Shown in pieces: positions 37,515 through 63,270 of a stretch of DNA of 64,000 nt. Numbering within the stretch: the first letter of the stretch is position 1; each line of letters begins with the position of its first letter. The DNA is taken from contig OZ023205.1 of NCBI GenBank assembly GCA_963995525.1, positions 55,844,677 to 55,908,676 of the forward strand. Direction: 5' to 3'. The translations under genes and the position numbers were made by a program. Under the pieces are notes generated by a model. It saw nothing but the letters and a program-made list of their open reading frames with translations, made no database searches and was not told where the DNA came from. The DNA is from Escarpia spicata. Lineage: Eukaryota > Annelida > Polychaeta > Sabellida > Siboglinidae.

Positions 37515-37680
37515 TCAGCCTAGGTGTTTTTTTCTGCGGTTGCGTTTTTCTTCTGCTAGCCTACGGAGAGTATCCTCTCCTCTTTTGAGGCCCCTGTGTA
37601 GTTCCTGCCTCCAAGTGGATCGCAGATGTGAACGTAATGCAGCTCTCCTTCCAGTGGCCAGCCCTCCGTCGAGGATATAT
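37515..37680 (-). pseudogene. LINE 3' coding fragment
   Basis: The minus strand reads DGGLATGRRAALRSHLRSTW and RLAEEKRNRRKKH, related to the C-terminal tail of the LINE at 47115-47870 (LYGELATGKRA..RPHLRF). A short isolated remnant bounded by a (TA)n tract at about 37676-37752. Confidence 0.55.
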
Positions 37681-37695
37681 ATGTATATATATATA

Positions 37696-37755
<60 letters not shown>

Positions 37756-37864
37756 GTCATTAAGTTACTTCAGCGACCGATCTTTCAGAAACAATATAAA
37801 CTACAACAATTCACAGCAGCTATTTTATTGCGACTGACAATTTATAAAGTGTTGGCCTCAGAGA

Positions 37865-38530
37865 CTGTGAACACTGCTGGAAGGATTATACCGATGCACA
37901 TTGTAAACACCCTTGATAAGATTAATCCGACCAACTGTGTTAACAGTGTTAACATATCTGAAAATATTACACCGACCAAGAATGTGAACACTCCCAATAA
38001 GATTACACCTACCACGAATGTAAACACCCCTGAGAAGATTACACCCACCGAAGTTGTGAACACTCTTGGTAAGACTACACCGACCAATATTGTGAACACT
38101 CTTGATAAGAATATACCGACTAGGATTGTGAACACTCCTAGTAAGATTACACCGTCTAAGATTGTGAACACTCCTGGTAAGATAACACCGACTAAGATTG
38201 CGAACATTAATGATAACATTATATCAACTAAGTTTGTGAACACTCCTGGTGAGATTACATCGACCAAGCTTGTGAACACTCCTGGTAAGATTACACCGAC
38301 TAAGATTGTGAACACTCCTGATAAGATTACACCGTCTAAGATTGTAAACTCTCCTGGTAAGATTACACTGACTAAGACTGCGAACATTAATGGTACGATT
38401 ACACCGACTAAGATTGTGAACATTCTTGGTAAAATTACACCAACTAAAATTGTCAACACTTCTGGTAAGATTAAACCGACTAAGATTGTCAACACTCCTG
38501 GTAAGATTACACCGACTAAGATTCGATTAC
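37865..38530. repeat. 36-bp minisatellite, about 18 units
   Basis: Unit of 36 bp repeated roughly 18 times with point differences. On the plus strand each unit reads as 12 residues close to ITPTKIVNTPGK, open from 37842 to 38583. On the minus strand it reads as hydrophobic VFTILVGVILPG-like units, also open. No signal peptide or supported flanking exon was found, so coding is undecided. The frame is kept because the unit length is a multiple of three. Confidence 0.75.
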
Positions 38531-38656
38531 AACAGCGAACATCATTCCCATTCCTGATGAGATTACACCGTCCAACAGCTTGAGCATACAAGAGGGCATT
38601 GCACTGATCAATGTTTTCAATATTCCAGATAATACTGTGAAACTTCCTATTCAGAT

Positions 38657-39050
38657 GGTGTCGGATGTTTCGGCGCACGCGATAGCCGGAATTCAAAGCA
38701 GCTGGAATCTAAGGACGAATGTTTCGGCCCACGTTGTGTATACCATGATTACATTTACAAATAAAGTATAATCATGCATACATGCTGCACACATACGCAC
38801 GTAAGCTTACAATACAACTAAAGTATATGCACCATCCAAACGACAACAATAACAACGGTCAGTTAGAATGCGTTCAGTCGAAAGTCAGATTTTACAACCT
38901 AACCAGGACGGACGGTTCGGCCCATGGAGCCAGCTGGCACCATCTACACAAACGGTTGATTCGGTCCACGCGAGCGCAAACACACCGGTTTGATGGACGG
39001 ATGGTTAGGCCCATGGGCCGAACCCTTCATGAGCCGAAACATCCGACACC
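38657..39050. mobile_element. MITE with 18-bp perfect terminal inverted repeats
   Basis: GGTGTCGGATGTTTCGGC at 38657-38674 is exactly the reverse complement of 39033-39050. Subterminal variants of TTCGGCCCAYG recur at about 38716, 38910 and 39015 in both orientations. About 394 bp long with no coding capacity; non-autonomous DNA transposon by structure. Confidence 0.65.
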
Positions 39051-43857: not shown

Positions 43858-45723
43858 TCAAACATTGCAAGGGAAGTATTCTCCATTATCAGATCCATCA
43901 CTCATCATCACGTTCAATGAAACCGTAAAAGTCAAACTCGTCCTCTTCTTCCTCTTCCTCCTCCTCCTCCTCCTTCTTTGAGGGTTTCGTCGAGGTGATC
44001 TCGATTGCAAGACTAGGTCATGTTGAGAAACGGAGCGGGGTCTGCGATGGGGATATTCTCCTCCTCGGCGAATCGCTTCATTAACAGCCTCTCCATTGGG
44101 TAGGGCTTTCAAACAGACTCCCAGATCGAACGTATTCAGGACCCAATTCTGACCAACCTCAGCCGTGGCTACCTCCGGGCGCTTTAGTAGCTCGCGAACA
44201 ACTGTGTTGTCAGTGATCGGTTGATGGATGGGCGTGAAGTAGTCCACTGTTGATTTTCTGGGCGGGGGAGTCCCGGGTACAGAGGTGAAGCCCCGTAGTC
44301 CAGGCACGGGCTGCTTGCCGCTGCTTCCGATATACCTGTTGAAGAGCCAGACATAGTACTCTTGCATCTTAGTAGCATAGACGGCGTCGTTCTCTGCAGG
44401 GGGTATGAATGATGAGCCATCAGGAAACTTTGGGCCAACGCGAGTGAAGTGTAAGGGTGGGAGAGTTTGTGGTTTGTTGACGTTCAGGCTACGCAGTTGC
44501 GAATTGTCGATGATAGGCAGCGTTCGGAGCTTGGGGCTCTCGAACCCAGGCCTGACCTCCTGCACCATGATTCCCCCAGCACTGTTGACAATGTTGCTGC
44601 CGTGCGCATTCGTAGTGGTTTTATTCAAGTTGTCACACTCACAATGGAATACGACGTTGCCCTGTCCCGTCACGAGTTGGGGCGTCAAATAGACTAATAC
44701 TTCGTCCTGGTCCTCTAAGCCAAAATTGTAGCCCTCAGAGTGGCCAAGCCTGTGCAATATCATGGTCAGCTGCTCGCTTTGGAACAAGTGCCTGACAGTC
44801 AAACAGAGAAGCACGTGTTTTGGTAACTTACATTTTCCCTCCGACATTGCACGGAACAGGTCTTGCCGGATGGAGAATACCAGACGCTTCATCTTTTCGC
44901 TCGTCTCCACGCCTTCCTTGCCGGCCATAACCATGCTGAGGAACCGTATGAGGTCTGTAGGTAGGAGTTTTTCAGGACTGAGCTCCATGCCGTCGGCTGT
45001 TGGCGGCCACGGTAGGCCTTCGGACTCTCTGAAAGCTCGTAGAATATTACGAAGAAGAAGGAGAACGACGTCTTGGTACTTGTCTGCGCTTCCGAGGGTG
45101 TAAGCTCGTGCAAGAGCATTAGAAACGGTGATATTCGAGCTGTACACGAGCCAGAATGAAGTGGCATCAGCTTTGTCGTGATCGACCTTCGTGAAGTAGA
45201 CATGGTCCTTGATTGGGTCATTCTGTAGGCGTTTCAGAAGTTTCTTCGCGCGATAGGTCAAGCTCTTGTATCCATTCCGTTTCAGTTCGTCGACATAGAG
45301 CAAGCGCAAGGAAGATAGCCGTAGGACCTCATTCTGCTGGACGACATGTGTCTGAATGAGCTCTAGTGCCGAGACGAGCGCCTTCTCGTGGGCGGCTGAC
45401 ATGCGAGCATGTTCGGTATCCTTTGCTCCTTCGGCTATGCGAATCCCGCGCTTATAGTTAGCGAACGCTGTGCGGAAAGATCTCAAGCATGATGGATGGT
45501 GTTTGGCCTCACCAGCAAAGAGGTCTTTATTTTTCACCCGTCGATGCAGTCGAACTAGACCCATTTTCTCTTAGCCCCATGATGCCATTTGCTCCCATGC
45601 ATTTTCTCTGTTCTTCCAAGACGAGAAGTCTCCAGCTCGCTCAGTTTTGCGATCACCATCTTTGATCTCTACTTTGTCACAGAAAATGCACTCTGGTGGG
45701 AAGATGGGTCCAGCGGAACTCAT
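43858..45723 (-). pseudogene. Uncharacterised transposon-associated protein with N-terminal zinc-finger-like segment (one in-frame stop)
   Basis: The frame opens at ATG 45723, meets TAA at 45571-45573 after 50 codons, and restarts two codons later at ATG 45564, running 568 codons to 43858 without another stop. The leader has CIFCDKV and a Trp-containing linker, and the main part continues with GEAKHHPSCLRSF; together they resemble a C-x2-C...H-x4-C finger, which suggests one original protein. Later features are a CECDNLNKTT..HGSN block, SGNQRE-like charged stretches, PVPGLRGF and a poly-Arg/Lys segment near the C-terminus. Similar proteins are multicopy in corals and molluscs, to my knowledge without an assigned function. 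A DDE catalytic triad cannot be picked out. It is either a once-interrupted pseudogene or two ORFs. Confidence 0.6.
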
Positions 45724-50774: not shown

Positions 50775-51906
50775 TATCAAAGGTGCTTTCTCAATTCGAT
50801 GTTTTTGTCATTCAAATTAATTTACCAAAAATGCAAACTTTCATAATAACCACTACGACATGCTAGTTTGTTTAAGCAATGTTGTACGTGCATTTTGTTT
50901 GTAAAACATCATACAAACTGTTACCTTATTTTAATTTACAAGAATAAATTCAAGCGATTTTCAAAATTGTAATAGACAAGCGAATGCACGAATCAATTAG
51001 CCTCCCCGCAGTTAGCGTACATATAAATTTTCGATCGCACGCGTAAAATTGGATCGGTAGAAAGCGCCACAGTTTCACAAGTAACCCTTCATGGGAAAGT
51101 CTTATGAGCGCACACACAATACGAGTCAATTACTGTGAGCATTGCGGTGTGGCCGCGTTGCGTTCGTCTATGAGTGAATTGTGCGATAATGCACACTACA
51201 GTTTGGCATGTTTTGCATGGCTGAAGAATACTGAGTCAGAACGAGAGATAGTGGCTGTATCGGTTACTATATTTATAGTATCCTTTGGTGTTCTGCGGGT
51301 CCTTCACCTGCATTCTGCACAATGGGATAATGATCAGCCGATTCTGTGCAGCCACGGCTACGCTGGTAATTACTTTATCGACAAAGAAAGGACTTACAAT
51401 TTGGTGTGTCATTGCATAATATACGTCGCCGAAACAGTGATTCACTAGTCTGAATACAAAAGATGTTGTTGTATTCCTTTGTTGCTTTTGCTTTGGTGGA
51501 TCAGACGTGAAAGAACGACCGAAAAGTCCCGTCGCGTAAGTGCGAACATAATTTATATACAATAACATACAGGTGGGTTTTCGATGTTATGGAAACCAAC
51601 ATGTTTTAAAGTACCTTAAGGGAAATAAAACGCAATCATGTGGGCATATAAGTAGTAAAGGAGACCGCGCTGGCCCCCGACTCGTGCCAAGATCAAAGGA
51701 GATCAAAGGCACCGCGGGTCACAAAGATCAACAAAGGTCAAGCAAGTTGACCCGGCACGATTGAAAAATCTACTTATAAAAAATGAAATATCTTAAGTGG
51801 GTTTGACAGCTTACTTATAAAAAACGTATGATTGATGAGTGTGGCAGGATGATTGATGAGTGTGGCGAGACAGTACGTAGCCGAGACAGACAGTACGTAG
51901 CGCCCT
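50775..51906. other. AT-rich left flank of the virus-like element
   Basis: No recognised gene. A 114-codon plus frame at 51104-51448 has no domain signature. Around 51690-51770 a GATCAAAGG motif repeats (AGATCAAAGGAGATCAAAGG, ACAAAGATCAACAAAGGTCA). The composition changes to GC-rich coding sequence about 1 kb further right. Confidence 0.4.
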
Positions 51907-52214
51907 CTGGTGTAGCGAGATAGTACCATTTCACTACCCCCCCTAGCGCCTCCTGGTGTCTTGTACTAGAAGGATATTCGTCTAGAAGGTTCGGAGATGG
52001 TTATGCTAGTACGAAAGAAGGTTATATAGCGGTTATTTACCCTAGCGGTGGTATATTTGCGCCCCTGGTGTAGCGAGATAGTACCATTTCACTACCCCCT
52101 AGAGCCTCCTGGTGTCTTGTACTAGAAGGATATTCGTCTAGAAGGTTCGGAGATGGTTATACTAGTACGAAAGAAGGTTATATAGCGGTTATTTACCCTA
52201 GCGGTGGTATATTT
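51907..52214. repeat. 158-bp tandem direct repeat, two copies
   Basis: 51907-52064 and 52065-52214 are near-identical, from CTGGTGTAGCGAGATAGTAC through GGTTCGGAGATGGTTAT to CCTAGCGGTGGTATATTT. Non-coding; at the left edge of the virus-like island and a candidate terminal or subterminal repeat or origin region. Confidence 0.85.
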
Positions 52215-52406
52215 CACCGAACTTATATAACGATATTAGTAGCGCCCTCTAGGTAACGGTTCTAGCACTTTGTATATTATAACAAGACCTTTGAACGAAT
52301 CCCTTAGCTAGCGGCTATGCTATTCTTTCGCGCCATTCTTTTTTACAAACCTTCACCCGGTATGACGCTTGTTGTTGTTGTTGACACCAAGCGTAATCGG
52401 TAACAG

Positions 52407-52566
52407 GCGTCCAAAGTCCATTGAACGATGCTGGCTGACTGAGCTGCTTTGGAGAATAATGCTACTGTATTATTCATACCGTAACTGCGTCCAAAGTCCA
52501 TTGAACGATGCTGGCTGACTGGGCTGCATTGGAGAATAATGCTACTGTATTATTCATACCGTAACC
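52407..52566. repeat. 80-bp tandem direct repeat, two copies
   Basis: 52407-52486 and 52487-52566 differ at only a few positions (GCGTCCAAAGTCCATTGAAC through TATTCATACCGTAAC). Non-coding, between the 158-bp repeats and the first virus-like gene. Confidence 0.85.
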
Positions 52567-52697
52567 TAGTAGGTAGATGTAAGCTTGTCTTTATAGAGGG
52601 TTCAGAACAACTAGTTGGAATATAGAGTTCAAACGGATAATAACGGTGTGAACATAAAGACAACGAGGAGTGCGGTGAGCAATATTATTATATTCTA

Positions 52698-53520
52698 CTA
52701 TCCCCAGCGTACGCCGTAAGCACTGGGTGGTCCACCACCACTACCAGTACTGTTATAGGGAGGTCGAGGGGGGTCCGGATCAGGTCCGAAGCCGGCGCGA
52801 ACCTCCACCAGCGAGGCACGATCGTCGGGGCGCTCCACCAGCGAGGCGTCGGGGCGCTCCACCAGCGAGGCACCGAGGCGTCGTACACCAGTCACAACGC
52901 ACGTGCGAGCGGCCGGTACCGCGGGGCGGCGATATAACGTCGGCGGCGGTAGTTGCGTGTCCGGGTCGACGGCCGCCTCTGGCGGTGACGTAGGAGGTGC
53001 CTCCTGTCGTAGCGGCGCGCCCCTAGGCAACCCCGCCGATCCCCAGCGGCCGGTCGTAGGAGGTGCCTCCTGTCGTAGCGGCGCGCCTCTAGGCAACCCC
53101 GAGCCCCAGCGGCTAACGGTGGTCGATTGAGTCCGCCTAGCGCAGTACCCATCGTCAAACCACCGAGGCGCCTCATCAGGGTTATTCTTCCGGTCCCTGT
53201 GCCGTGGAAACGGCATAGCGCATTTGGCCTGTAAGAAAACAATAATAAACTATAATATTACAGTGATTAAAAAAGGTCTACAGTTTAAATTGGTGGTGAT
53301 ATTATAGCGCATTTGTCCTGTAAGAAAACAAAGTCTTAAATAATAATAATAATTAAATATACTACAGTGATTAAAAAAAGGGTCTACAGTTTAAATAATA
53401 AAATAGACCCACGGTATCGAAGGAACTGTAGTTTTTGTAAATATCGCTTAAATATTAAAAAGAAAGCGTGAATGTTAAAAAGGTATATGGGTAGTTACGT
53501 ACCGTCCGTGAATATGCCAT
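52698..53520 (-). CDS. Proline-rich virus-like protein, two-exon gene with 274-bp intron
   Basis: Exon 1 coding is 53503-53520 (six codons from ATG 53520), ending at ACG|GTACGTAA, a strong donor. The intron is 53229-53502 and exon 2 is 53228-52698, entered through TTTTCTTACAG|G. Both boundaries are phase 0 and the frame stays open, giving about 182 residues. Without splicing, an ATG at 53216 would give 172 residues. The protein is rich in Pro, Arg, Gly and Ala, with internal duplications (two copies of LPRGAPLRQEAPPT, repeated ASLVERPD) and no recognised domain or membrane segment. It is transcribed divergently from the RPA-like gene. Structural or accessory roles are both possible. Confidence 0.6.
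53218..53396. repeat. 89-bp tandem repeat that duplicates a splice acceptor
   Basis: 53218-53306 and 53307-53396 are imperfect direct copies (GCGCATTTGGCCTGTAAGAA and GCGCATTTGTCCTGTAAGAA; both end near GTCTACAGTTTAAAT). On the minus strand each carries TTTTCTTACAG|G. Only the proximal acceptor (53229) leads into the long open frame; entry at the distal one meets a stop after about ten codons. Confidence 0.8.
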
Positions 53521-53893
53521 GGTTTAGACTAGTCGAAAAGACCGTGTAGTTCCATAAACGCCTTGTAACGGAATGTTGTTTACTGTAGAACTTCTAGAAG
53601 GTTCTATAACACCACCTGACACGCGGCACGTAGGCCTCGTCACGTAGGCCGGGTTGCGTAATGTTAAACATTTTAATAAAAGCTTAAAAGCATAAAATAA
53701 ACGATCTATAAGGAGCTGTAAGGACTAGAGAATCTTATGGTAAACATATATTTAAAAATAAGACTCTATAAAAGCAATACGCCGTTTGTGCACTTCATAA
53801 CCGAGCGGTTTTTTTCTAGTTTCAATAACCTTGGCAGACTCGGCTGTTGTGTGGTATACGTGTTTACGCGCACGCGCGCTATTCACCGTCCGC

Positions 53894-53900
53894 TTATAAG
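53894..53900 (+). promoter_or_regulatory. TATA box of the RPA-like gene
   Basis: TTATAAG lies 86 bp upstream of the ATG at 53980, in GC-balanced sequence, and is followed by a plausible initiator about 30 bp downstream. A comparable TATA element sits 72 bp before the polymerase ATG, which supports both starts. Confidence 0.55.
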
Positions 53901-53979
53901 TAGTTAGGCTAAGAGCGTCTATGTATTCACTCGGTTTTGACTGTTTTAACGTTTACGAACTTCCTCAGCCGCAGCAGTC

Positions 53980-54777
53980 ATGTCGACGACGGGTTCACCA
54001 CCACCTATCAAACGAACGAAGAAGGCGAAGGCGAAGGGGAAGGCGGCCACCGCAGCAGATCAGACGTCGCCCGTCGGTATCAACGCATCCGGAGCCCGAT
54101 CGACACCACCCGCCGTCGCCGGCAGCAGCAGCAGCCGGGGCGCGCCCGTAGCCCGACCGTCGACCATCGTTGCCGGTATCTGCGCGCCCGTAGCAGTGGC
54201 GACGTCGCCGCCGCCGCCGAGCTCCGAGCCTAGCAGTGCGTCGTCGCCACCCCCGCTACTCGTCCTTCCACCTTCGGTGAGTGTAAGCGAGCTTCTACAG
54301 GCGGGCGACGGTCTCTACTCGATAGCGCCCAACGTAAAGGTGGCCGCTATCTCATGGAGAACCCGGTGCACGTACGAGGGGTGTACCCAATGCCGTCGTA
54401 AGGTGTTTAGATCGTCGAACAGCATTCAGGTATGTGCCTCCCACGGGGTACAGCGCGAGGTGAGACATTATTTCGCGGTTCGGATGATGGTGAGGGAAGA
54501 TGCGGAGGGGTCGGCCGAGATATGGATCAGTCTATTCGACGACGCGATGACCAACCTCGTCCCCTACAAGGCCGACTATCTCGCCTCGATGAACCCCGAC
54601 ACACTGCGCGACACCGTCCTACAGATCGTCGGCACGGTCATCGAGGAGCTCGTCGTACGAAAGACAACGTGGGGGTCGGGGGCCCCGCCGACGTACACCG
54701 TTCGGAGTGTGGCGTCTAAGAAAAGCGACGATGATGATGATGACGACGACGACGACGATGAGTATATTAACCGCTAA
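53980..54777 (+). CDS. RPA-like zinc-ribbon/OB-fold single-stranded-DNA-binding protein
   Basis: 265 residues from ATG 53980. Residues 9-21 are a basic, nuclear-localisation-like segment (PIKRTKKAKAKGK) and 22-100 are low complexity (Pro/Ser/Ala). From about 118 a fold like the C-terminal DNA-binding domain of replication protein A large subunit begins. It has a zinc ribbon C135-x2-C138-x13-C152-x2-H155, then HYFAVRMMVREDAEGSAEIW and SLFDDAMTNLV, the RPA-type beta-barrel strands with a partner Asp/Gly turn. The C-terminus is a run of Asp. The inferred role is ssDNA binding during element replication, next to the polymerase. The fold call comes from pattern reading and needs a profile search. 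Confidence 0.6.
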   Translation: MSTTGSPPPIKRTKKAKAKGKAATAADQTSPVGINASGARSTPPAVAGSSSSRGAPVARPSTIVAGICAPVAVATSPPPPSSEPSSASSPPPLLVLPPSVSVSELLQAGDGLYSIAPNVKVAAISWRTRCTYEGCTQCRRKVFRSSNSIQVCASHGVQREVRHYFAVRMMVREDAEGSAEIWISLFDDAMTNLVPYKADYLASMNPDTLRDTVLQIVGTVIEELVVRKTTWGSGAPPTYTVRSVASKKSDDDDDDDDDDDEYINR

Positions 54778-54800
54778 CGATTCGTTTTTGTGTACTGTAG
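54430..54800 (+). other. Predicted 371-bp alternative intron
   Basis: CAG|GTATGT at 54429/54430 is a consensus donor falling on a codon boundary (phase 0) inside the zinc ribbon. The acceptor TACTGTAG|GAC at 54800 has a CTAAC branch-point-like sequence at 54774-54778 and a T-rich tract. The downstream exon frame begins exactly in phase 0. A shorter, 39-bp intron using the donor at 54762 would lead to an early stop. Confidence 0.55.
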
Positions 54801-55706
54801 GACGTCGAAGAGGCACGGGCGCGGGCCCTCGACTCTATAATCATCGATGCTTTGAGCGCCCTACCCACCGCCGCCGCCGATCTGCTACCGTCGGACACGC
54901 CGATGATATCCCTCGCCCTGCTCGAGGCCGCCACCACTCCGTGGACACCCTTGGTCGAGCCTACCTATCAACCACCGCTGCTAGTCGCTTGCGACTCACC
55001 GCCGTCGTATTCGAGCTCGACAGCATCGCCGCCGCCTCGGTCAACCGATACCAGTCTAGCAGGGGAAACTCGTGGCGAACCGCCGCCGCCTACGTATACG
55101 AGCCTATACCCGCTCCCGATCGACAGACCGGCGGATGATGAGGCGGCATCGACCGTGCTAATATCATCGGGAGACTCGAACGCGCAACAGGGATCGTCCG
55201 GCTCGGCGTCACCGTTTCTCGAGTTACCATCGTCCAGGCCGCCCCGAGCGTGCTTCGCGCCACCTCAGGATGCGGATTTGATGAGGGAGCTGATGAGTAA
55301 TTTCGCCGAGGTGATCGGGGAAAGCATACTCGATCGTGCACGCCGTTACTGCGGTGAATGCGAGTCCAACGAAGGGTGCCCCTTTGTACATGTACAAGGG
55401 TACAGAGCCGGGCGCCCTAGCCGCCACTATCGGCGACTGTTCACGGATGTGTTCAGTATATGCACTCGCTTCTTCCAATCCGTATTGACCGACTACTCGG
55501 ATCGATCGTTAATACCGTGTTTGACGCGTATGATCCTGAACGTTCACGACCGATACGAGCTTCACGCGGATCGTCAAGCCGAAGTTCGTCTCGTACACCG
55601 GGTAACCGCGTGGTTCCTTGAGACCGACTGGCTCCACAGCCGCTCCGATTACGTGAGACTGGAGTCGGCGGTAACGGCCTACCTACTGGGAAGAGCTGAT
55701 TTCTGA
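54801..55706 (+). CDS. Second exon: PPxY-containing virus-like protein sharing the RPA-like N-terminus
   Basis: Open frame of 301 codons plus stop, directly after a TAG that forms the acceptor. It has no ATG before 54903, so it is best read as an exon spliced to residues 1-150 of the upstream gene, for a total near 451 residues. Unspliced, it could start at 54903 (267 residues). The N-terminal part is an acidic/alanine helix, then a Pro/Ser-rich region with two PPxY motifs (PPSY near 55000, PPTY near 55088). The C-terminal domain has YCGECESNEGCPFVH, a possible zinc knuckle, and a helical tail. The family is unknown. PPxY motifs recruit NEDD4-type ubiquitin ligases in many viruses; here that is only a suggestion. 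Confidence 0.55.
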   Translation, partial: DVEEARARALDSIIIDALSALPTAAADLLPSDTPMISLALLEAATTPWTPLVEPTYQPPLLVACDSPPSYSSSTASPPPRSTDTSLAGETRGEPPPPTYTSLYPLPIDRPADDEAASTVLISSGDSNAQQGSSGSASPFLELPSSRPPRACFAPPQDADLMRELMSNFAEVIGESILDRARRYCGECESNEGCPFVHVQGYRAGRPSRHYRRLFTDVFSICTRFFQSVLTDYSDRSLIPCLTRMILNVHDRYELHADRQAEVRLVHRVTAWFLETDWLHSRSDYVRLESAVTAYLLGRADF

Positions 55707-55710
55707 ACAG

Positions 55711-55952
55711 TGCTTAAAAAATGAACTTTAATGGCGAGAATTGCTTAATACAACCTTAGATCAAGAACTTTATTTTATATAACCGAAAAAGAAGAATAAA
55801 GCACACTTGTGCTGAATATCGCTTAATAACACACGTTTGTGGAGAACGTTTTAATAGAAAATATGCCTGCTTATTCGAATATGCGGTGCTTAATAAAGCA
55901 CGTTTTGCTTGTTGTACGACGCTTAATAAAACGTTGAAACGTATAAACACTC
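55711..55952 (+). promoter_or_regulatory. Intergenic GCTTAATA motif array with poly(A) signals
   Basis: GCTTAATA occurs exactly at 55743, 55821, 55888 and 55921, with a variant (GCTTAAAA) at 55712. The copies at 55888 and 55921 contain AATAAA, and another AATAAA lies near 55794. The region separates the RPA/PPxY unit from the polymerase. It probably holds the 3' end of the former; the repeated octamer could also be a protein-binding site. Confidence 0.45.
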
Positions 55953-56204
55953 TTGTTGTTTACTATTACGAAAATCACCACTCCCGTCCTATACTTACAC
56001 TCGCCTGTGATAAAGGCTGCAACACAACACACACACATAGTAGAAGGCGACCCTTTATTTTTAGCTCCACCGTTTCGCCTCACCGTAACTAGGGCAAAGA
56101 TCGCCGTAGGGTCAACCCCGGTAATCAATAGTAGTAGTAGTCCTAGCGACGGCGGCGGCGGCGGCGGTAACAGTCATCATCACCACCACCACCCCACCCA
56201 CCCG

Positions 56205-56211
56205 TATATAG
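56205..56211 (+). promoter_or_regulatory. TATA box of the DNA polymerase gene
   Basis: TATATAG, 72 bp before the ATG at 56277. It lies downstream of the first ATG of the long open frame (55953), so initiation here makes the shorter 1409-residue start the likely one. Confidence 0.6.
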
Positions 56212-56276
56212 AGGCGTGTAGAGCTTCTTTTCAACTAATAACGTGTTTGTTATTGTTCGCTCCGGCTGCAACAAAC

Positions 56277-59200
56277 ATGCCTACTCGTTGTCCCGTATGC
56301 AATCGAGACGTCGTTAGTTTGGTGGGACATACGTGTAGTAGTAAACCACGGGAGTACCGATGTCCGAATTGTGATCAGACGTATAACGGGCGTAGGGTCC
56401 TAGTAAGACATTTAAAGAATTGCGTTAACGGAAATCGAGATGACGATATCGCCTGCCCGAAATGCGGTAAATATTTTCTTCATCGACATTCTCTGTTGAA
56501 TCATATGAGAGTTTCGAAAACCTGCGGTACGAAAAAAAAGGTAGTACCACCACCACCACCACCACCACCACCACCGCCACCACCACCACCGCCACAACCC
56601 GATGATGATGATGACGCGGACGATGAGGGGTGGTCGGCCGGTCTACGGCGTACAGTGCAAGAGCACTGGTCGAGTATACGAACGTCGATATTCCGGGGCC
56701 CTCTTCAGTCGAGATACAATCACCAGCTGACTCATTGCGTGGACACGTCCGTTCTCGAACCGCGACTAAGACAAATGTTTGAGGAACAAACTCGAGCGTT
56801 CAAGATCAATTTAAGTTTCGGGTTTGTGTTAAGACACAAAGAGACGGGTCGTTTCCGGTATTATCATACATCCTGTAATTGTTGCGGACGCTTCCTCGAA
56901 GCCCCGATGCTAGTTACCGACGCCGCCTCGTTCGACCGCTTCCTCGAGACCGTCCGACAACCCGACGTTCTGCAATACGCGATAATGCAACGGCCTGACT
57001 CGGGGTGGGTCGTCGAATTGGTAACAAATGTTACCTATTTCCTCAATGCCATCATCCACCACCCGATCGGGTGTCTGAACGCTCAACTACCCGCCTACCT
57101 GTACGCGAACAGATCGATCATCGCGCTCGCGAAAGACCGTCGAGGTAAGCCGTACACCGATAATTTATGCCTCTTCCGGTGCCTGGCCCTACACCGAAGA
57201 AGACTACTGTCCGCCCCGACCGCCATGGTAAACACCATCCGTTTGACGACCCCCGCCTTACGGCTCTACGCCGACTACAACGACGGGGTGGTGAGTCCCT
57301 ACACCTTCGCCGGCGTGCCGCTGAACGAGCTCGACCGGGTGGAGACGTGCTTCGAAACCAACGTCGTCGTGTATCGACTGATAGATCCGACGACGACCGA
57401 CGGCGGATCGACAGCCGAATTGGTCCGTCGTTCCCTCTACCGATACCCCACTACCATGAACGTCAATCTATACGACACTCACTACTCGTATATACCCAAC
57501 GTCTCGCGGTATACGCGATCGTACCTGTGCAGTAAGTGCGGTGACTCGTTGTGGCGAAAGCCCTCTACGCTACGGCGGCACGAAGCGACGTGTGAGGGTG
57601 GCGTTCGCCACGTCTTTCCCGGCGGTGTCTACCGCCCGACACCGTCCGTGTTTCAGCAGCTGGACGACGAGGGCATCTGCGTACCCGACCACCTCCGCTA
57701 CTACCCGTACAGAGCGACATTTGATTTTGAGTGCTACTTCGACGATAGCGACCTGCCGGCGGATAGCCCTAAGTGCCGGTGGATAGCCCGGCACGAGCTA
57801 CTCAGCGTGAGTATCGCCTCGAACGTCCCCGGTCACGAGGCGGCGCAATGCTTCGTTACGACCGGCGATTCGAACGATCTCGCGCGGCGCCTGATCGTCG
57901 CCCTAGAGGCCGTGAGCGAAGCGGCGTGCGCGGCTCTGCGACCGTCGTACGACCGAGTCTTCGAAGCGATCGAGACGCTCGACGCCGAATGGCGAGTCGC
58001 CGCCGGCGACACCGACAACAAGACCCCGTACACCGCACTCGCCACACGCCTGTGGACGCATCTACGCCAACTCCCCGTCCTCGGCTTCAACTCGGGCAAG
58101 TACGATTTGAACGTAGTCAAAAAGTATCTCACGCCCCTCTTCCTGATCGTCGGTCAGCCTACCTCGACGGCGTTCGCGATTAAACGGCAGAACAATTTCA
58201 TGTGCCTGTCGACGGAGACGCTCAAGTTCCTGGACATCACTAACTACCTGGCCCCGGGATTCAGCTACGATAAGTTTCTGAAGGCTTACGGCTGCAGCGT
58301 AACGAAGGGCTACTTCCCCTACGAGTACGTCGACGCGTTGGGGAAACTAGACGACGACAAACTACCGCCGCGCGAGGCGTTCTACAGCCACCTGAAATGC
58401 GAAGGGATCTCCGCCGAGGCGTACGAGGGTTGCGCGGCGGTATGGCGCGCCGAAGGGATGACCACGCTAAGGGACTTCCTCGTGTGGTACAATAACCGAG
58501 ATGTGGTCCCGTTTTTGGAGGCCGTCGACAAGCAGTTCACCTTCTACCAGCAGCACCGCATCGATATGTTTAAGGACGGCATCAGCGTCCCGGGTCTAAC
58601 GCTCCTCTACCTGTTCAACGATCTCCCGTTGTCGATTCACTTCACACTCTTCAACGAATCGAACAAGGACCTGCACCGGCTCATACAGACGCAGATCGTC
58701 GGCGGTCCCTCGATCATCTTCGCGCGCTATCACGAGGCCGACGTAACCGTTCTACACGGCGGCCACCCGTGTCGCTCGATCGTGGGCTTTGACGCGAACG
58801 GGCTCTACCTATGGGCGATCGCCCAAGATATGCCGACGGGGTGGTATACGCGCCGGCGGGCGGAGACCGGCTTTCGGCCGCAACGTGTACACCGCTACGG
58901 CCGTATGGCCGTGCAGTGGCTAACGTGGGAGGCCGAAAGGACGGGGGTGCGCATAGGACACATGCTCAACGGGCGCGAACACCGCGTCGGCAAGTACCGG
59001 GTCGACGGCTGGTGTCGCGAGACGCGAACGGCGTACCAGTTCCAGGGGTGTTTCTTTCACGGCTGCCCGTGTACGGGGCGCGAAATGAACGACGTTAACG
59101 GGCGGTCGATGACTCGCCTCTACGCCGAGACGAACGCCGTCACCACCTACCTTCGCCGGTTCGTCACCGTCGTCGAGATGTGGGAGTGCCAATGGCGCGA

Positions 59201-60506
59201 ACTGCGACCGCCGGCGCCGCCCGAGGAGAGTCGCTGGACGGCCCCCGGCGCCGTCGTTACGACGTCGACGATCCTGAAGGGCGTACGCGACGGTACCCTC
59301 TTCGGGCTGGTAGAGTGCGACATCGCCGTCCCGGACGCGCTGCGCGATGTCTTCGCCGAGATGCAGCCGGTGTTCAAGAACGCCAACATCGGCCGCGACG
59401 ATCTCAGCCCGTTCATGCGTCGCTACGCCGAAGCTCACGACCTCCTGAAGCGACCTCAACGGACGCTCGTGGGTAGCTTTTTCGGCAGCAAGATTCTACT
59501 CGCGACGCCCCTACTACGGTGGTATCTGGAGCACGGCCTCGTCGTCGACCGCGTGTACCAGATCGTCGAGTACGTCCCGGTCGCCTGCTTCCGCCGCTTC
59601 GGCGACACGGTCTCGGCGGCGCGACGCGAGGGCGACACCGACCCCGACAAAACCATCATCGCCGACACCTTTAAGCTAATGGGCAACAGCTCTTACGGGA
59701 AGACTATTACGCGCGTCGATCTCCACAGGGACACGAAATACTGCACGACGACCGGCGCCTCGACGCTCGTCAACGACCGCCGCTTCCGACAGCTCGACGT
59801 CGTCGTACCCGGCAGCGTCTACGAGGTGGCGCTGAACAAGCGAATCGTCCGCTACAAACTACCAAACCAGATAGGCTACTTCGTCTATCAGTACGCGAAG
59901 CTACGGATGCTCGAGTTTTACTACGATTTTATCGCCTTCTACATCCCGAGACCCCTCTTCCAGTACTGCGCCATGGATACGGACTCGGCGTACATAGCCC
60001 TCGCGGGGCGGAACGTCGACGACCTGGTGGAGGAGGCTAAACGCGAGCATTACTTTCGCCATCGCGGCGACTGGTTCCCGGCCGAATGCTGCGACGTTCA
60101 CGCGGACGCGTACGCGCAGTGCCGACTCGCCGGGCGAGCGTGGGACACGCCGCCGCCCTGTTGCGCTCGACGACGCCTGTACGACAGGCGAACGCCGGGG
60201 CTCTTCAAGGAGGAGTGGTCCGGGCGCGGAATCGTCGCGCTCTGTAGTAAAACGTACTACTGTTTCGGTCGGGACGGCGACAAGTACAGCACTAAGGGGT
60301 TGAATAAGCGTCAGAACGACATCGACAAGGACGTCTTCCTCGCCGTGCTGCGCGATCGACGGAGCCGCGGCGGCACGAACCGCGGCTTCCAGGTGCGCGA
60401 ATCGTCCGTGCTGACGTACATTCAGGAGCGCGCGGCGTTGAGCTATTTCTACGCTAAGCGTCGCGTCCTCGACGACGGCATCACCACGGCGCCCATTCTC
60501 GTGTAG
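56277..60506 (+). CDS. polB: Family B DNA polymerase (virus-like, probably protein-primed)
   Basis: 1409 residues from ATG 56277, chosen because of the TATA box at 56205 and because a zinc-binding segment (RCPVCNRD) starts at once; the frame is open from 55953. In order: C2H2-type fingers (about 5-85), a polyproline run, a conserved region with YTDNLCLFRCLALH (D295), and a 3'-5' exonuclease with Exo I FDFECYF (D483, E485), Exo II FNSGKYD (N605, D610) and Exo III YNNRD (Y738, D742). The polymerase follows: motif A DANGLYL (D839), motif B KLMGNSSYG (K1133, Y1140) and motif C DTDS (D1234, D1236). All catalytic residues are present and there are no stops. It would replicate the element. Protein priming is inferred from the family, not seen. 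Confidence 0.9.
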   Translation: MPTRCPVCNRDVVSLVGHTCSSKPREYRCPNCDQTYNGRRVLVRHLKNCVNGNRDDDIACPKCGKYFLHRHSLLNHMRVSKTCGTKKKVVPPPPPPPPPPPPPPPPQPDDDDDADDEGWSAGLRRTVQEHWSSIRTSIFRGPLQSRYNHQLTHCVDTSVLEPRLRQMFEEQTRAFKINLSFGFVLRHKETGRFRYYHTSCNCCGRFLEAPMLVTDAASFDRFLETVRQPDVLQYAIMQRPDSGWVVELVTNVTYFLNAIIHHPIGCLNAQLPAYLYANRSIIALAKDRRGKPYTDNLCLFRCLALHRRRLLSAPTAMVNTIRLTTPALRLYADYNDGVVSPYTFAGVPLNELDRVETCFETNVVVYRLIDPTTTDGGSTAELVRRSLYRYPTTMNVNLYDTHYSYIPNVSRYTRSYLCSKCGDSLWRKPSTLRRHEATCEGGVRHVFPGGVYRPTPSVFQQLDDEGICVPDHLRYYPYRATFDFECYFDDSDLPADSPKCRWIARHELLSVSIASNVPGHEAAQCFVTTGDSNDLARRLIVALEAVSEAACAALRPSYDRVFEAIETLDAEWRVAAGDTDNKTPYTALATRLWTHLRQLPVLGFNSGKYDLNVVKKYLTPLFLIVGQPTSTAFAIKRQNNFMCLSTETLKFLDITNYLAPGFSYDKFLKAYGCSVTKGYFPYEYVDALGKLDDDKLPPREAFYSHLKCEGISAEAYEGCAAVWRAEGMTTLRDFLVWYNNRDVVPFLEAVDKQFTFYQQHRIDMFKDGISVPGLTLLYLFNDLPLSIHFTLFNESNKDLHRLIQTQIVGGPSIIFARYHEADVTVLHGGHPCRSIVGFDANGLYLWAIAQDMPTGWYTRRRAETGFRPQRVHRYGRMAVQWLTWEAERTGVRIGHMLNGREHRVGKYRVDGWCRETRTAYQFQGCFFHGCPCTGREMNDVNGRSMTRLYAETNAVTTYLRRFVTVVEMWECQWRELRPPAPPEESRWTAPGAVVTTSTILKGVRDGTLFGLVECDIAVPDALRDVFAEMQPVFKNANIGRDDLSPFMRRYAEAHDLLKRPQRTLVGSFFGSKILLATPLLRWYLEHGLVVDRVYQIVEYVPVACFRRFGDTVSAARREGDTDPDKTIIADTFKLMGNSSYGKTITRVDLHRDTKYCTTTGASTLVNDRRFRQLDVVVPGSVYEVALNKRIVRYKLPNQIGYFVYQYAKLRMLEFYYDFIAFYIPRPLFQYCAMDTDSAYIALAGRNVDDLVEEAKREHYFRHRGDWFPAECCDVHADAYAQCRLAGRAWDTPPPCCARRRLYDRRTPGLFKEEWSGRGIVALCSKTYYCFGRDGDKYSTKGLNKRQNDIDKDVFLAVLRDRRSRGGTNRGFQVRESSVLTYIQERAALSYFYAKRRVLDDGITTAPILV

Positions 60507-60746
60507 TAGGCGAGGCGGGGGAACTACCCCTCTAAGGGGCGCCTCTAAGGCGAGGACAGGGCCTAAAGGACTACCTACCCCTCTAAGGGGTAGGCGGCGG
60601 CCGGGTCTCTAGGGGTAGGGTAGGTAGGTAGGTAGGGTCCTGGTACGAAATAAAACAAATGCAACACCTACAATACGTTTCATCGTCTTTTATTCGTAGT
60701 AGTAGCGGTAACAAGCTTGAAAGCGATACTAGTAGTTAATAAGAGT
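60507..60746. terminator. Convergent 3' ends: hairpin and overlapping poly(A) signals
   Basis: Plus-strand AATAAA at 60649-60654 serves the polymerase, and minus-strand AATAAA (plus TTTATT) at 60689-60694 serves the protease/capsid unit, only about 40 bp apart. Upstream, 60574-60594 is a hairpin with 9-bp stem CCTACCCCT/AGGGGTAGG and a 3-nt loop, preceded by a related CCCCTCTAAGGGG palindrome and followed by GTAG repeats. Confidence 0.65.
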
Positions 60747-61199
60747 CTAATGTGGATTTAGCCAGTCGAATACGAGACAGTCGTTAGTCACCCGATCGGC
60801 GCCGAACAGGTACTGGAACCCCTTTAGCGGTAGACCGCGGCATCGTAAGAGCAGGTAGGCGACGCAATATTGTCCGCATACGTTAGAGACCACGCTCTGC
60901 AGTCGCTTGTCGTTGTACGTCCAGCGCGCGTCGCAGTTGCGGCGCAGGAAGGCGCGGAAGTCGTCGTGCTGCGGTGGCAGACCGTACGAGTCGAAGTAGT
61001 CGCCTCGCCCGTCGACGTCCACGTAGACGACCACCCAATGTTCGCCCGGTTCGCCGCCGTCGTCGGTATTGCATACGAAAGCCGCCGGTAGATCGGTGAG
61101 CCGTCGTTTCGGTAGCGCGTCTTTGGCCACGACGCCGACAACCACGCGTCTAGTGAACGGGTCGAGGCGTAGGCGACGTAGCAGCTGAAAAGTGTCCAT
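60747..61199 (-). CDS. Adenain-like cysteine protease
   Basis: 150 residues. The catalytic layout matches adenovirus-type maturation proteases (family C5): H54 in GEHWVVVYVD, D70 in DYFDSYG, a Gln oxyanion residue at about 101 and C108 in NVCGQYC, followed by the helical YLLLRCRGLPL segment. At 150 residues it is shorter than adenain (about 200). The ATG lies one base after the capsid stop codon on the same strand, so the two are probably on one late transcript or use closely spaced promoters. The expected role is cleavage of capsid or core precursors during virion maturation. The catalytic residues are seen; the substrate is inferred. Confidence 0.8.
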   Translation of the reverse strand: MDTFQLLRRLRLDPFTRRVVVGVVAKDALPKRRLTDLPAAFVCNTDDGGEPGEHWVVVYVDVDGRGDYFDSYGLPPQHDDFRAFLRRNCDARWTYNDKRLQSVVSNVCGQYCVAYLLLRCRGLPLKGFQYLFGADRVTNDCLVFDWLNPH

Positions 61200-61200
61200 G

Positions 61201-62496
61201 TTAGCGATCGTACAGGACGTTCCGGCTTTTGTCGATCTCGAGCACCGCCTCGAACTCGCCGTACACGACGACGTTCACCGTGCGCGGGAGAGCCGCCGCG
61301 AAGTGGACCTCGAAACGAAGGGCGCCCTTACGCACGACGTTGAAATGCGGGCCATCGCAGCAGTCGGGCGATAGGTCGAAGCCGAAGATGGCGTAGCCGT
61401 TACCGTAGTCGTGGCGCGTCACATCGAACCCCTCGTCCTCGTACGCTTTTCCCGTCGCCGCGAAGAGGTTCGCGTAGCTGCGGATGTAATGACCGTTCGG
61501 GAAGTCCGGCTGCAACGGCTTGCTCGGCACCTGACGTCCGTCGACGTAGAGAGCGAGAAAGTTTATGTTGTAGTGCTTCGCGTTGTACGGGTTTTTAGTG
61601 TAGTCCCCGTTATAGGCGTCGTTGTCGACGAACATCAGGAACACGCGTCGCGGGATCGTGCCCAGGTAGACGTTCTCGTGCGTATGCGACATCGTCCCCT
61701 GCGCTATCGAGAACGACTTGCAGTCGACCCGCCGTAGCGGGTACTTGGCCGTGCCGATCATCAACGCCTTGATGTGTCCGAGCTGGACGTCCGGGTTCAC
61801 TTTAGCTTTTCGCACTTGTAGGTAGGTCTCCAGTATGACGGCTTTCCAGTCCCCCGCCACTCCCATAAGCGTGAAGGCGTCCTTCGCGCGCACCGCTCGA
61901 AGCTTTATGTCGACGCCGCTCAGCAGGTACCGGTCTTGCATGAACACGTCGACGTGCAGGCGGCCCATCAGCTCCACCTCGTGACCGTCCCGCGTATAGT
62001 GACGCCGCGAGGTGTACCCGCCGTTAGCCCCCGCGGTCGCATCCATGAAGCCGGCCGTATCCTTGAACCACAGACCGCTCGTGAGCTGCGTCTTTTTCGC
62101 ATCGCTCCCGTAACTCAGCAGGGTTTCGAGGTAGGCCCGGTACGGATACGTATTGGTCGACGGCGTCACGAACGTGCCGTTCAGCGCCACGTCGATTTGA
62201 CTGAACAGGGAATGCAGGAAATTGTTGGACGGCGCCACGTTAGCGTCGTGCGCGATATCGGCACCGTCCCCTTGGGTTATTTTCACGCGCACGTACAGTC
62301 TAACGCTCGACAGGTCCGTATACTCGTCGCCCGAGCCCGGGATGAGGAACTCGATGGGGCCGCCGGCGTCGAGCGTCGTCAGCGGCTGGTGATCGATCCA
62401 CTGCCCGCTCTCGACGCTCGTCTGCGTTAGCGGCGGCGTGAATAGGTCCAGTTCGCTCTTCAAACCCTCGCACGACTGCGGATGCACGAACGCCAT
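61201..62496 (-). CDS. Capsid-type protein (F54H12.2-like family)
   Basis: 431 residues from ATG 62496. It shows the conserved blocks of the protein family usually annotated as uncharacterized F54H12.2-like in invertebrate genomes: FVHPQSCEGLKSELDLF, IEFLIPGSGDEYTDLS, NNFLHSLFSQIDVALNG, YPYRAYLETLLSYG, LTSGLWFKDTAGFMD and LHVDVFMQDRYLLSGVD. The gene lies beside an adenain-like protease and a polymerase, in the position of a major capsid gene, and the strand-rich sequence is compatible with a jelly-roll capsid protein. The family membership is recognised; the double-jelly-roll assignment is an inference to be tested by structure prediction. No stops or frameshifts. Confidence 0.75.
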   Translation of the reverse strand: MAFVHPQSCEGLKSELDLFTPPLTQTSVESGQWIDHQPLTTLDAGGPIEFLIPGSGDEYTDLSSVRLYVRVKITQGDGADIAHDANVAPSNNFLHSLFSQIDVALNGTFVTPSTNTYPYRAYLETLLSYGSDAKKTQLTSGLWFKDTAGFMDATAGANGGYTSRRHYTRDGHEVELMGRLHVDVFMQDRYLLSGVDIKLRAVRAKDAFTLMGVAGDWKAVILETYLQVRKAKVNPDVQLGHIKALMIGTAKYPLRRVDCKSFSIAQGTMSHTHENVYLGTIPRRVFLMFVDNDAYNGDYTKNPYNAKHYNINFLALYVDGRQVPSKPLQPDFPNGHYIRSYANLFAATGKAYEDEGFDVTRHDYGNGYAIFGFDLSPDCCDGPHFNVVRKGALRFEVHFAAALPRTVNVVVYGEFEAVLEIDKSRNVLYDR

Positions 62497-62585
62497 TCTA
62501 GCTGCTGCTGCTGTCGACGTCTGTCCCGTTCGCCGCCGTTCGCTCCGACTGCACGCCGCCGCTTCGACCGGTGGCTTTATCCGTC

Positions 62586-63008
62586 CTAGCTACTGAATAT
62601 ATCGTGCGGTTCTTTTTGACGGCGACGGCGTTGTTGTTTCTTCTTACGCGGGGTCGCCGTTACCGCTTTACCCGGTGGTCGGCGTCGCTTTTTCGGCGGC
62701 GGTGCGTTCAACAGCCCGTCGAGAAGGTCGGCGCCGGCCTCCTTCGCGCGTCGTTTCATCGACTGTTTCAGGTTCCCGCCGGCGACGACGTCCCGCGCCA
62801 CGCGCACGCCTGTCTTGAGCGCACGTTTCCCCAACGCCATGGCGCCTCTCTTGATAAGCGGCATGGCGCTTCGAAACAGGCTCCCGAACAGATTACCCAA
62901 GCCGTGTCCCCGCTGCCCCTGGCCGCCGACGAAGAACGGTAGCTGACCACCGACCTGTCGAACGTAGTAGTCCTCGTACACGTTGGTGCGACCGGCGGTT
63001 CTTGTCAT
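62586..63008 (-). CDS. Basic core-like protein with GGQxPxF/QRGxGLG motif
   Basis: 140 residues from ATG 63008 (upstream in-frame codons to the gap lack an ATG). The start is followed by YYVRQVGGQLPFF and GQRGHGLGNLFGSLF, then an amphipathic stretch RSAMPLIKRGAMALGKRALK and a very basic tail (KKRRRPP, RKKKQQRRRRQK). This is the pattern of small virion proteins that accompany F54H12.2-like capsid genes, reminiscent of adenovirus core pX and membrane-active pVI. Val-x-Gly-Gly dipeptides may be protease sites. It is first in the minus-strand late-looking cluster. Role inferred: genome condensation or membrane interaction. Confidence 0.65.
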   Translation of the reverse strand: MTRTAGRTNVYEDYYVRQVGGQLPFFVGGQGQRGHGLGNLFGSLFRSAMPLIKRGAMALGKRALKTGVRVARDVVAGGNLKQSMKRRAKEAGADLLDGLLNAPPPKKRRRPPGKAVTATPRKKKQQRRRRQKEPHDIFSS

Positions 63009-63070
63009 TTTCCTCCTCCGCCGTTTCAAAACAGTTTAGATTTACAGCGTCTGATGTGAAGCGTCGCCAC

Positions 63071-63270
63071 NNNNNNNNNNNNNNNNNNNNNNNNNNNNNN
63101 NNNNNNNNNNNNNNNNNNNNNNNNNNNNNNNNNNNNNNNNNNNNNNNNNNNNNNNNNNNNNNNNNNNNNNNNNNNNNNNNNNNNNNNNNNNNNNNNNNNN
63201 NNNNNNNNNNNNNNNNNNNNNNNNNNNNNNNNNNNNNNNNNNNNNNNNNNNNNNNNNNNNNNNNNNNNNN
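63071..63270. other. Scaffold gap (200 N)
   Basis: Exactly 200 undetermined bases, probably an arbitrary spacer. It cuts the right side of the virus-like element, so missing genes and the terminal repeat may be here. Confidence 0.95.

What the first reader, a model, noticed from the sequence alone, without database searches (positions are those of the whole stretch)
51907..63070. Intact-looking endogenous DNA-virus-like element with polymerase, protease and F54H12.2-type capsid
Seen: convergent units, an open 1409-aa polB with every catalytic motif, an adenain-like protease with His/Asp/Gln/Cys, a capsid-type protein and a basic core-like protein. Known: polB plus adenain-like protease plus capsid define Polinton/adintovirus-type viruses. 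Inferred: this is a member of a little-described animal lineage whose capsid family is catalogued mostly as an uncharacterised protein. It may be able to form virions.
Basis: partly seen in the sequence, partly recalled or inferred. Interest (0 to 1): 0.88.

Follow-up and report, generated by a model that had tools for sequence, protein, structure and literature searches.

The report
Polinton-type virus cut by assembly gap
This stretch of an animal genome holds part of an integrated Polinton/Maverick-type DNA virus with open polymerase, protease and capsid genes; it is a good specimen of a known kind of element, and what lies to its right is hidden by a gap in the assembly.

The parts
53980..54777 (+). 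RPA-like ORF, 265 aa: Pro/Ser-rich N-terminal part, zinc/OB-type domain like the RPA70 C-terminal domain (C-x4-C-x2-C-x13-C-x2-H), acidic tail
   Evidence: Rep_fac-A_C E 1.8e-6, 28.2 bits against cut-off 28.5; rpa1 E 9.6e-4 and archaeal RPA E 0.0038 on the same residues, far below those models' whole-length cut-offs; cysteine positions; GC3 0.71, viral genes 0.70-0.83; no relative at E<=0.01
54801..55706 (+). Open frame of 301 codons beginning just after an AG at 54799-54800 (first ATG 54903), with two PPxY motifs and Cys/His residues in the C-terminal part; function unknown, belonging to the element inferred from composition and position
   Evidence: no family above cut-off in Pfam (shorter form), none in NCBIfam
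56277..60506 (+). PolB of protein-primed type, 1409 aa: C2H2-type finger(s), TP-like domain, vOTU, 3'-5' exonuclease, palm
   Evidence: 1,071 relatives at E<=0.001 of 7,994 scored; motifs; DNA_pol_B_2 19.1 bits, below cut-off 25.8; N-terminal folds
56697..57056 (+). Terminal-protein-like domain of PolB (beta-alpha-beta-beta-alpha-beta), little-finger/PAD-like
57156..57509 (+). vOTU cysteine protease domain of PolB; Cys at PolB residue 298 and His at 402
60747..61199 (-). Adenain/Ulp1-type cysteine protease, 150 aa, His54 Asp70 Gln101 Cys108
   Evidence: profile of 4 rows hits African swine fever virus protease S273R E 1.1e-5; relative in L001 hits Peptidase_C5 20.8 bits against cut-off 21.3; window and L002 proteins alone hit no Pfam family
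61201..62496 (-). [quoted passage not shown]
62586..63008 (-). Small basic protein, 140 aa, 23% Lys+Arg, at the position of Maverick PW; core-protein role inferred
   Evidence: 73, 52 and 43% identical to proteins at the same position in L002, L001 and L003; KR fraction
63026..63070 (-). Last 14 codons and stop of a gene at the penton/minor-capsid position, cut by the gap
   Evidence: alignment to L002, L001 and L003 proteins; that these are pentons is inferred from gene order, fold not tested
63071..63270 (.). 200-N assembly gap hiding the rest of that gene and whatever follows
51900..52565 (.). Two tandem duplications (156 bp x2, 80 bp x2) at the left side; membership of the element not shown

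Best explanation
This is an integrated Polinton/Maverick-type (adintovirus-like) double-stranded DNA virus in an invertebrate genome, seen up to an assembly gap; whether this copy is whole or a remnant is open. Shown here by sequence and modelling: a replication unit and a virion unit converge, and their proteins have the folds and active-site residues of Polinton proteins. Inferred: the TP-like domain at the PolB N-terminus primes synthesis at the ends of a linear genome, the vOTU domain then cuts the primer domain free, and the exonuclease-palm part copies the genome. Capsid trimers and a penton build an icosahedral shell, the basic protein condenses the DNA, and the adenain-like protease matures the particle. 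An rve integrase, present in the relative L001 but not visible here, would put the genome into host chromosomes. The RPA-like product would coat the displaced single strand.
For: Capsid double jelly roll. PolB motifs, OTU and little-finger matches, best viral match a Drosophila-associated adintovirus 2 protein, E 2.7e-12. The published TP-vOTU-exo-palm layout was read. Protease. L001 carries polB (its 5' end cut by the contig), ATPase, two further ORFs, rve+chromodomain integrase, penton-position gene, basic protein, capsid and protease in that order; published Maverick modules are polB-ATPase-PM-PZ and integrase-minor capsid-PW-major capsid-protease. L002 has the window's convergent order. 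Gene tail at the gap. dN/dS 0.14-0.53 in 8 of 8 comparisons with L001 and L002. GC 59-62% in the six ORFs against 32-53% in 1-kb steps over 40-52 kb.
Confidence: 0.93

Rival explanations
1. A decayed fossil (a narrower form of the best explanation): the visible genes happen to be open but integrase, ATPase, penton or ends have been lost, so the locus is a dead remnant of a Maverick.
For: Missing parts in the window; the relatives L002 and L003 have broken capsid frames; published work% of vertebrate Maverick copies defective.
Against: The four complete core ORFs (polB, protease, capsid, basic protein) are open, and the missing genes begin exactly at an assembly gap.
Confidence: 0.45
2. A co-opted host locus: the capsid or polymerase is kept by the host for a defensive or other function.
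For: Open frames and dN/dS below 1 between relatives; Maverick genes kept open without terminal repeats are reported beside a Glyptapanteles bracovirus proviral locus.
Against: Selection is measured between different elements, not orthologous loci, so it fits virus-level selection; several genes are kept together; composition is unlike the surroundings.
Confidence: 0.05
3. A new virus family distinct from Polintons that shares only the polymerase with them.
For: The window capsid matches no Pfam model on its own, and the two fold matches named as MELD virus or adintovirus are at 15% and 12% identity.
Against: Gene order, protease and rve+chromodomain integrase in L001 and the Maverick two-module plan agree with Polintons; the capsid is 41% identical to a bracovirus protein, and published work derives some bracovirus-associated genes from Mavericks.
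Confidence: 0.05

Closest known systems
Polinton/Maverick elements
   Same: PolB with TP-, vOTU-, exonuclease- and palm-type parts, double jelly-roll capsid, adenain-like protease, basic protein and penton-position gene next to the capsid, two modules pointing to the centre
   Different: Integrase, ATPase and terminal repeats not visible beside the gap; an RPA-like gene upstream of polB, which the term searches of four papers did not show for Polintons, though Maverick accessory regions carry diverse ORFs
Adintoviruses (e.g. Drosophila-associated adintovirus 2)
   Same: OTU-bearing PolB with best viral fold match to an adintovirus protein; chromodomain integrase in the relative L001
   Different: Hexon not compared by sequence with alpha and beta adintovirus hexons; no row named adintovirus hexon among the 50 fold matches shown, several of which are unnamed
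Escarpia-associated elements L001 and L002 (contigs in an endosymbiont MAG)
   Same: Same genes; L002 is 75% identical at DNA level over capsid, protease and polB end and has the same convergent order
   Different: L001 has both modules on one strand; L002 capsid frame is broken and the contig is only 3.6 kb
Cotesia sesamiae bracovirus protein R9XLG5
   Same: 41% identity over 411 columns with the window capsid, E 7.2e-38
   Different: Lies in a wasp polydnavirus, poor overall superposition (rmsd 16.7); a Maverick origin is proposed for other bracovirus-associated genes, not checked for this protein
Adenoviruses
   Same: Hexon fold and protease type
   Different: Here the terminal-protein-like domain is fused to PolB and the vOTU Cys/His are kept

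Membership tests
Polinton/Maverick | Protein-primed PolB with TP, vOTU, exonuclease and palm | tested here: met
   motifs; OTU and little-finger folds in a low-confidence model; adintovirus, MELD-virus and mavirus proteins among viral matches. Priming itself is inferred
[quoted passage not shown]
   (model, not a solved structure)
Polinton/Maverick | Adenain/Ulp1-type protease | tested here: met
   relative just under the Pfam cut-off
Polinton/Maverick | Penton (minor capsid protein) | tested here: inconclusive
   only the last 14 codons precede the gap; fold not tested, no Pfam match for the L001 protein
Polinton/Maverick | rve integrase | tested here: inconclusive
   L001 integrase finds no match in the window; rve 50.1 bits and Chromo 33.8 bits in L001; the gap and the unanswered genome search prevent a test
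Polinton/Maverick | Genome-packaging ATPase | tested here: inconclusive
   L001 ATPase finds no match in the window
[quoted passage not shown]
   among the 25 inverted pairs shown of 103, two link the left side to the 730 bases after the gap, 25 nt at 76% and 23 nt at 83%, and one shared 13-base stretch was found by exact 11-mers; no ends defined, so the duplication could not be tested; the right end may lie in the gap
Polinton/Maverick | Replication and virion modules facing the centre | tested here: met
   only polB of the published first module is seen
Adintovirus (definition read in PMC11071296) | PolB with OTU-like N-terminal domain | tested here: met
Adintovirus (definition read in PMC11071296) | Hexon recognisable by BLASTp among adintovirus hexons | not tested
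   no named adintovirus hexon sequence was at hand
Adintovirus (definition read in PMC11071296) | rve integrase with C-terminal chromodomain | tested here: inconclusive
   present in L001, not found in the window
Adenoviridae | Terminal protein encoded apart from PolB, vOTU inactivated | tested here: not met
   TP-like domain lies in the PolB frame and vOTU Cys/His are present (low-confidence model); contrast read

The most novel reading that the evidence does not exclude
The element carries a captured host RPA70 DNA-binding domain as its own single-strand DNA-binding protein for strand-displacement replication. A passage of PMC8276246 says that protein-primed dsDNA viruses could be among the very few exceptions to OB-fold single-strand binding proteins, so an RPA-type OB-fold gene beside a protein-primed polymerase would run against that pattern.
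Probability: 0.35. Interest if true: 0.6.

Novelty: new member of a known kind. Interest (0 to 1): 0.4.

Why it matters
It gives an invertebrate Polinton with open polymerase, protease and capsid genes, and ties a very large, poorly named animal protein family to a modelled double jelly-roll capsid and to the Maverick gene plan. If the RPA-like gene is really part of the element, it points to how a Polinton could supply its own single-strand binding protein. Otherwise the locus is ordinary for its kind.

Tried and rejected
The capsid profile hit no PDB chain by sequence up to E 10. In the polB profile search of the PDB the 60 rows shown of 201 are cellular or designed C2H2 zinc fingers, so it says nothing about the palm. 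In the Pfam scan of 75 capsid relatives DUF4909 was met by more members (22, best E 0.0047) than DJR-like_dom (2, best E 1.5e-7). The RPA-like protein had no relative at E<=0.01 among 2,439 candidates; its PDB sequence hits are weak (best an eIF-1A family protein, E 0.012, aligned over the acidic tail; archaeal replication factor A, E 0.24). The PHROGs search gave one match under 0.001, a family of unknown function on a zinc-finger stretch of polB, E 8.9e-5.

An intron joining the RPA-like ORF to the 54801 frame was considered: a GT at 54762 and an AG at 54799-54800 exist, but the reading phases of that pair do not fit, so they are listed as two frames; other donors were not examined. Of 103 inverted pairs only the 25 longest were shown, 19-44 nt at 70-89%; none is convincing as element ends. 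The host could not be named: among the 120 relatives listed of 2,342, the best with a name is from the tubeworm Ridgeia (63% identity), others are from Lamellibrachia and the snail Littorina, and the very best carry no name.

Paper searches (9 of 10 used): no held paper has F54H12.2 or Polinton with tubeworm; none holds Maverick, transposable element, annelid and DNA polymerase together; Polinton with annelid gave 8 papers, one of which was opened; Polinton with replication protein A gave 5, two of which were opened by passages. The Starrett adintovirus paper is not held. No claim is made that this lineage or the RPA-like gene is absent from print. Foldseek against PDB for the PolB model was not run.

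Papers, what was seen: PMC11071296, parts 1-4 of 8 and passages; PMC11071308, parts 1-3 of 6 and a term search; PMC8097293, passages, section 7 and part 1 of 2 of section 14; PMC4028283, PMC2646287, PMC3665748, PMC8812541, PMC12220804 and PMC8276246, passages only. Recalled, from no call: adenain's own residues, the RPA70 zinc pattern, PPxY as a late-domain motif, the content of Dupuy 2011 (seen only as a reference).
Full report
What is in the sequence. The window holds two converging units rich in G+C: 59-62% in the six ORFs, against 32-53% in 1-kb steps over 40-52 kb. On the + strand lie an RPA-like ORF (53980-54777), an open frame (54801-55706) and a polymerase (56277-60506). On the - strand lie a protease (60747-61199), a capsid-type protein (61201-62496) and a small basic protein (62586-63008). 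AATAAA signals stand on both strands between the units (read by eye).

Protease and basic protein. Window and L002 proteases are 74% identical; His54, Asp70, Gln101 and Cys108 are present. A four-row profile hits the African swine fever virus protease S273R at E 1.1e-5, and the L001 copy scores 20.8 bits against a cut-off of 21.3 for adenovirus endoprotease. The window and L002 proteins alone matched no family. The basic protein is at the place of the Maverick PW gene; its role as a core protein is inferred.

What the gap hides. The 200 Ns at 63071-63270 begin inside a gene. Bases 63026-63070 encode the last 14 residues of a protein 86% identical there to the tail of the L002 protein, 50% to L001 and 43% to L003; the DNA match to L002 runs up to the gap. 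In L001 the gene of that protein is followed, on the side away from the capsid, by an rve integrase with chromodomain, two further ORFs and a P-loop ATPase, then polB. The ATPase matches Adeno_IVa2 at 22 bits against 21, but over 37 residues around the P-loop only; many other P-loop families match weakly. Of nine L001 proteins, four (polB, protease, capsid, basic protein) match the window at E<=0.01 and five do not. The Maverick plan in vertebrates is one module of polB, ATPase, PM and PZ and another of integrase, minor capsid, PW, major capsid and protease, usually facing each other, in Xenopus tropicalis on one strand, with accessory regions of diverse ORFs at the flanks. The window and L002 fit the first orientation, L001 the second. 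In the window the ATPase does not follow polB as it does in L001.

Selection. Eight gene or gene-piece comparisons with L001 and L002 gave dN/dS 0.14 to 0.53; dS against L001 is near saturation, 1.8-2.4. This fits genes maintained by virus-level selection but does not date or prove activity of this copy.

The RPA-like gene. It matches the RPA C-terminal domain at E 1.8e-6, 0.3 bits under the Pfam cut-off. Two whole-length RPA models match the same residues at E 9.6e-4 and 0.0038, far under their cut-offs. It has a C-x4-C-x2-C-x13-C-x2-H pattern. No database relative was found, its PDB sequence hits are weak, it was not modelled, and the contigs at hand do not reach this side of polB, so whether other elements have it is open. 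A captured single-strand binding protein is the boldest reading kept here; a passage of PMC8276246 says protein-primed dsDNA viruses could be among the very few exceptions to OB-fold single-strand binding proteins.

Limits. The genome search machine did not answer in eight tries, so copy number, host name and the far side of the gap stay unknown. No named Polinton or adintovirus sequences were at hand for a tree. Terminal repeats were looked for only inside the window.

Noticed in passing
window 53980-54777: RPA70-like zinc/OB-type domain in an ORF with no database relative found; may be a captured single-strand DNA-binding protein.
   Followed up: partly
window 54801-55706: Open frame with PPSY and PPTY motifs and Cys/His residues in its C-terminal part; begins after an AG, with no fitting phase to the GT at 54762 in the RPA-like ORF.
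   Followed up: partly
L001:1-11769 and L002:1-3607: Contigs filed in an Escarpia laminata endosymbiont MAG carry animal-type Maverick genes, so the bacterial bin seems to hold host DNA.
   Followed up: partly
L003:266-4706: A Breoghania MAG contig holds a Maverick remnant with broken capsid, protease and polB pieces, also probably animal DNA.
   Followed up: partly
L001 against window and L002: The virion module is inverted relative to polB between relatives of one family.
   Followed up: partly
P0032 (Ridgeia piscesae, 633 aa): Predicted protein seems, by eye, to fuse the penton-position protein to the capsid; gene-model join or real fusion not checked.
   Followed up: no
window 8564-10261, 22669-23736 and 24116-25243: Endonuclease and reverse-transcriptase ORFs of retrotransposon type.
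   Followed up: partly
window 43858-45564: 568-aa ORF with no Pfam match.
   Followed up: partly
window 37540-38696: Repetitive ORFs on both strands over the same stretch (ITPTKIVNTPGK-like repeats).
   Followed up: no
window 52698-53216: Pro/Arg-rich open frame on the - strand, 68% GC, with two near-repeats; no Pfam match near cut-off; belonging to the element unknown.
   Followed up: partly
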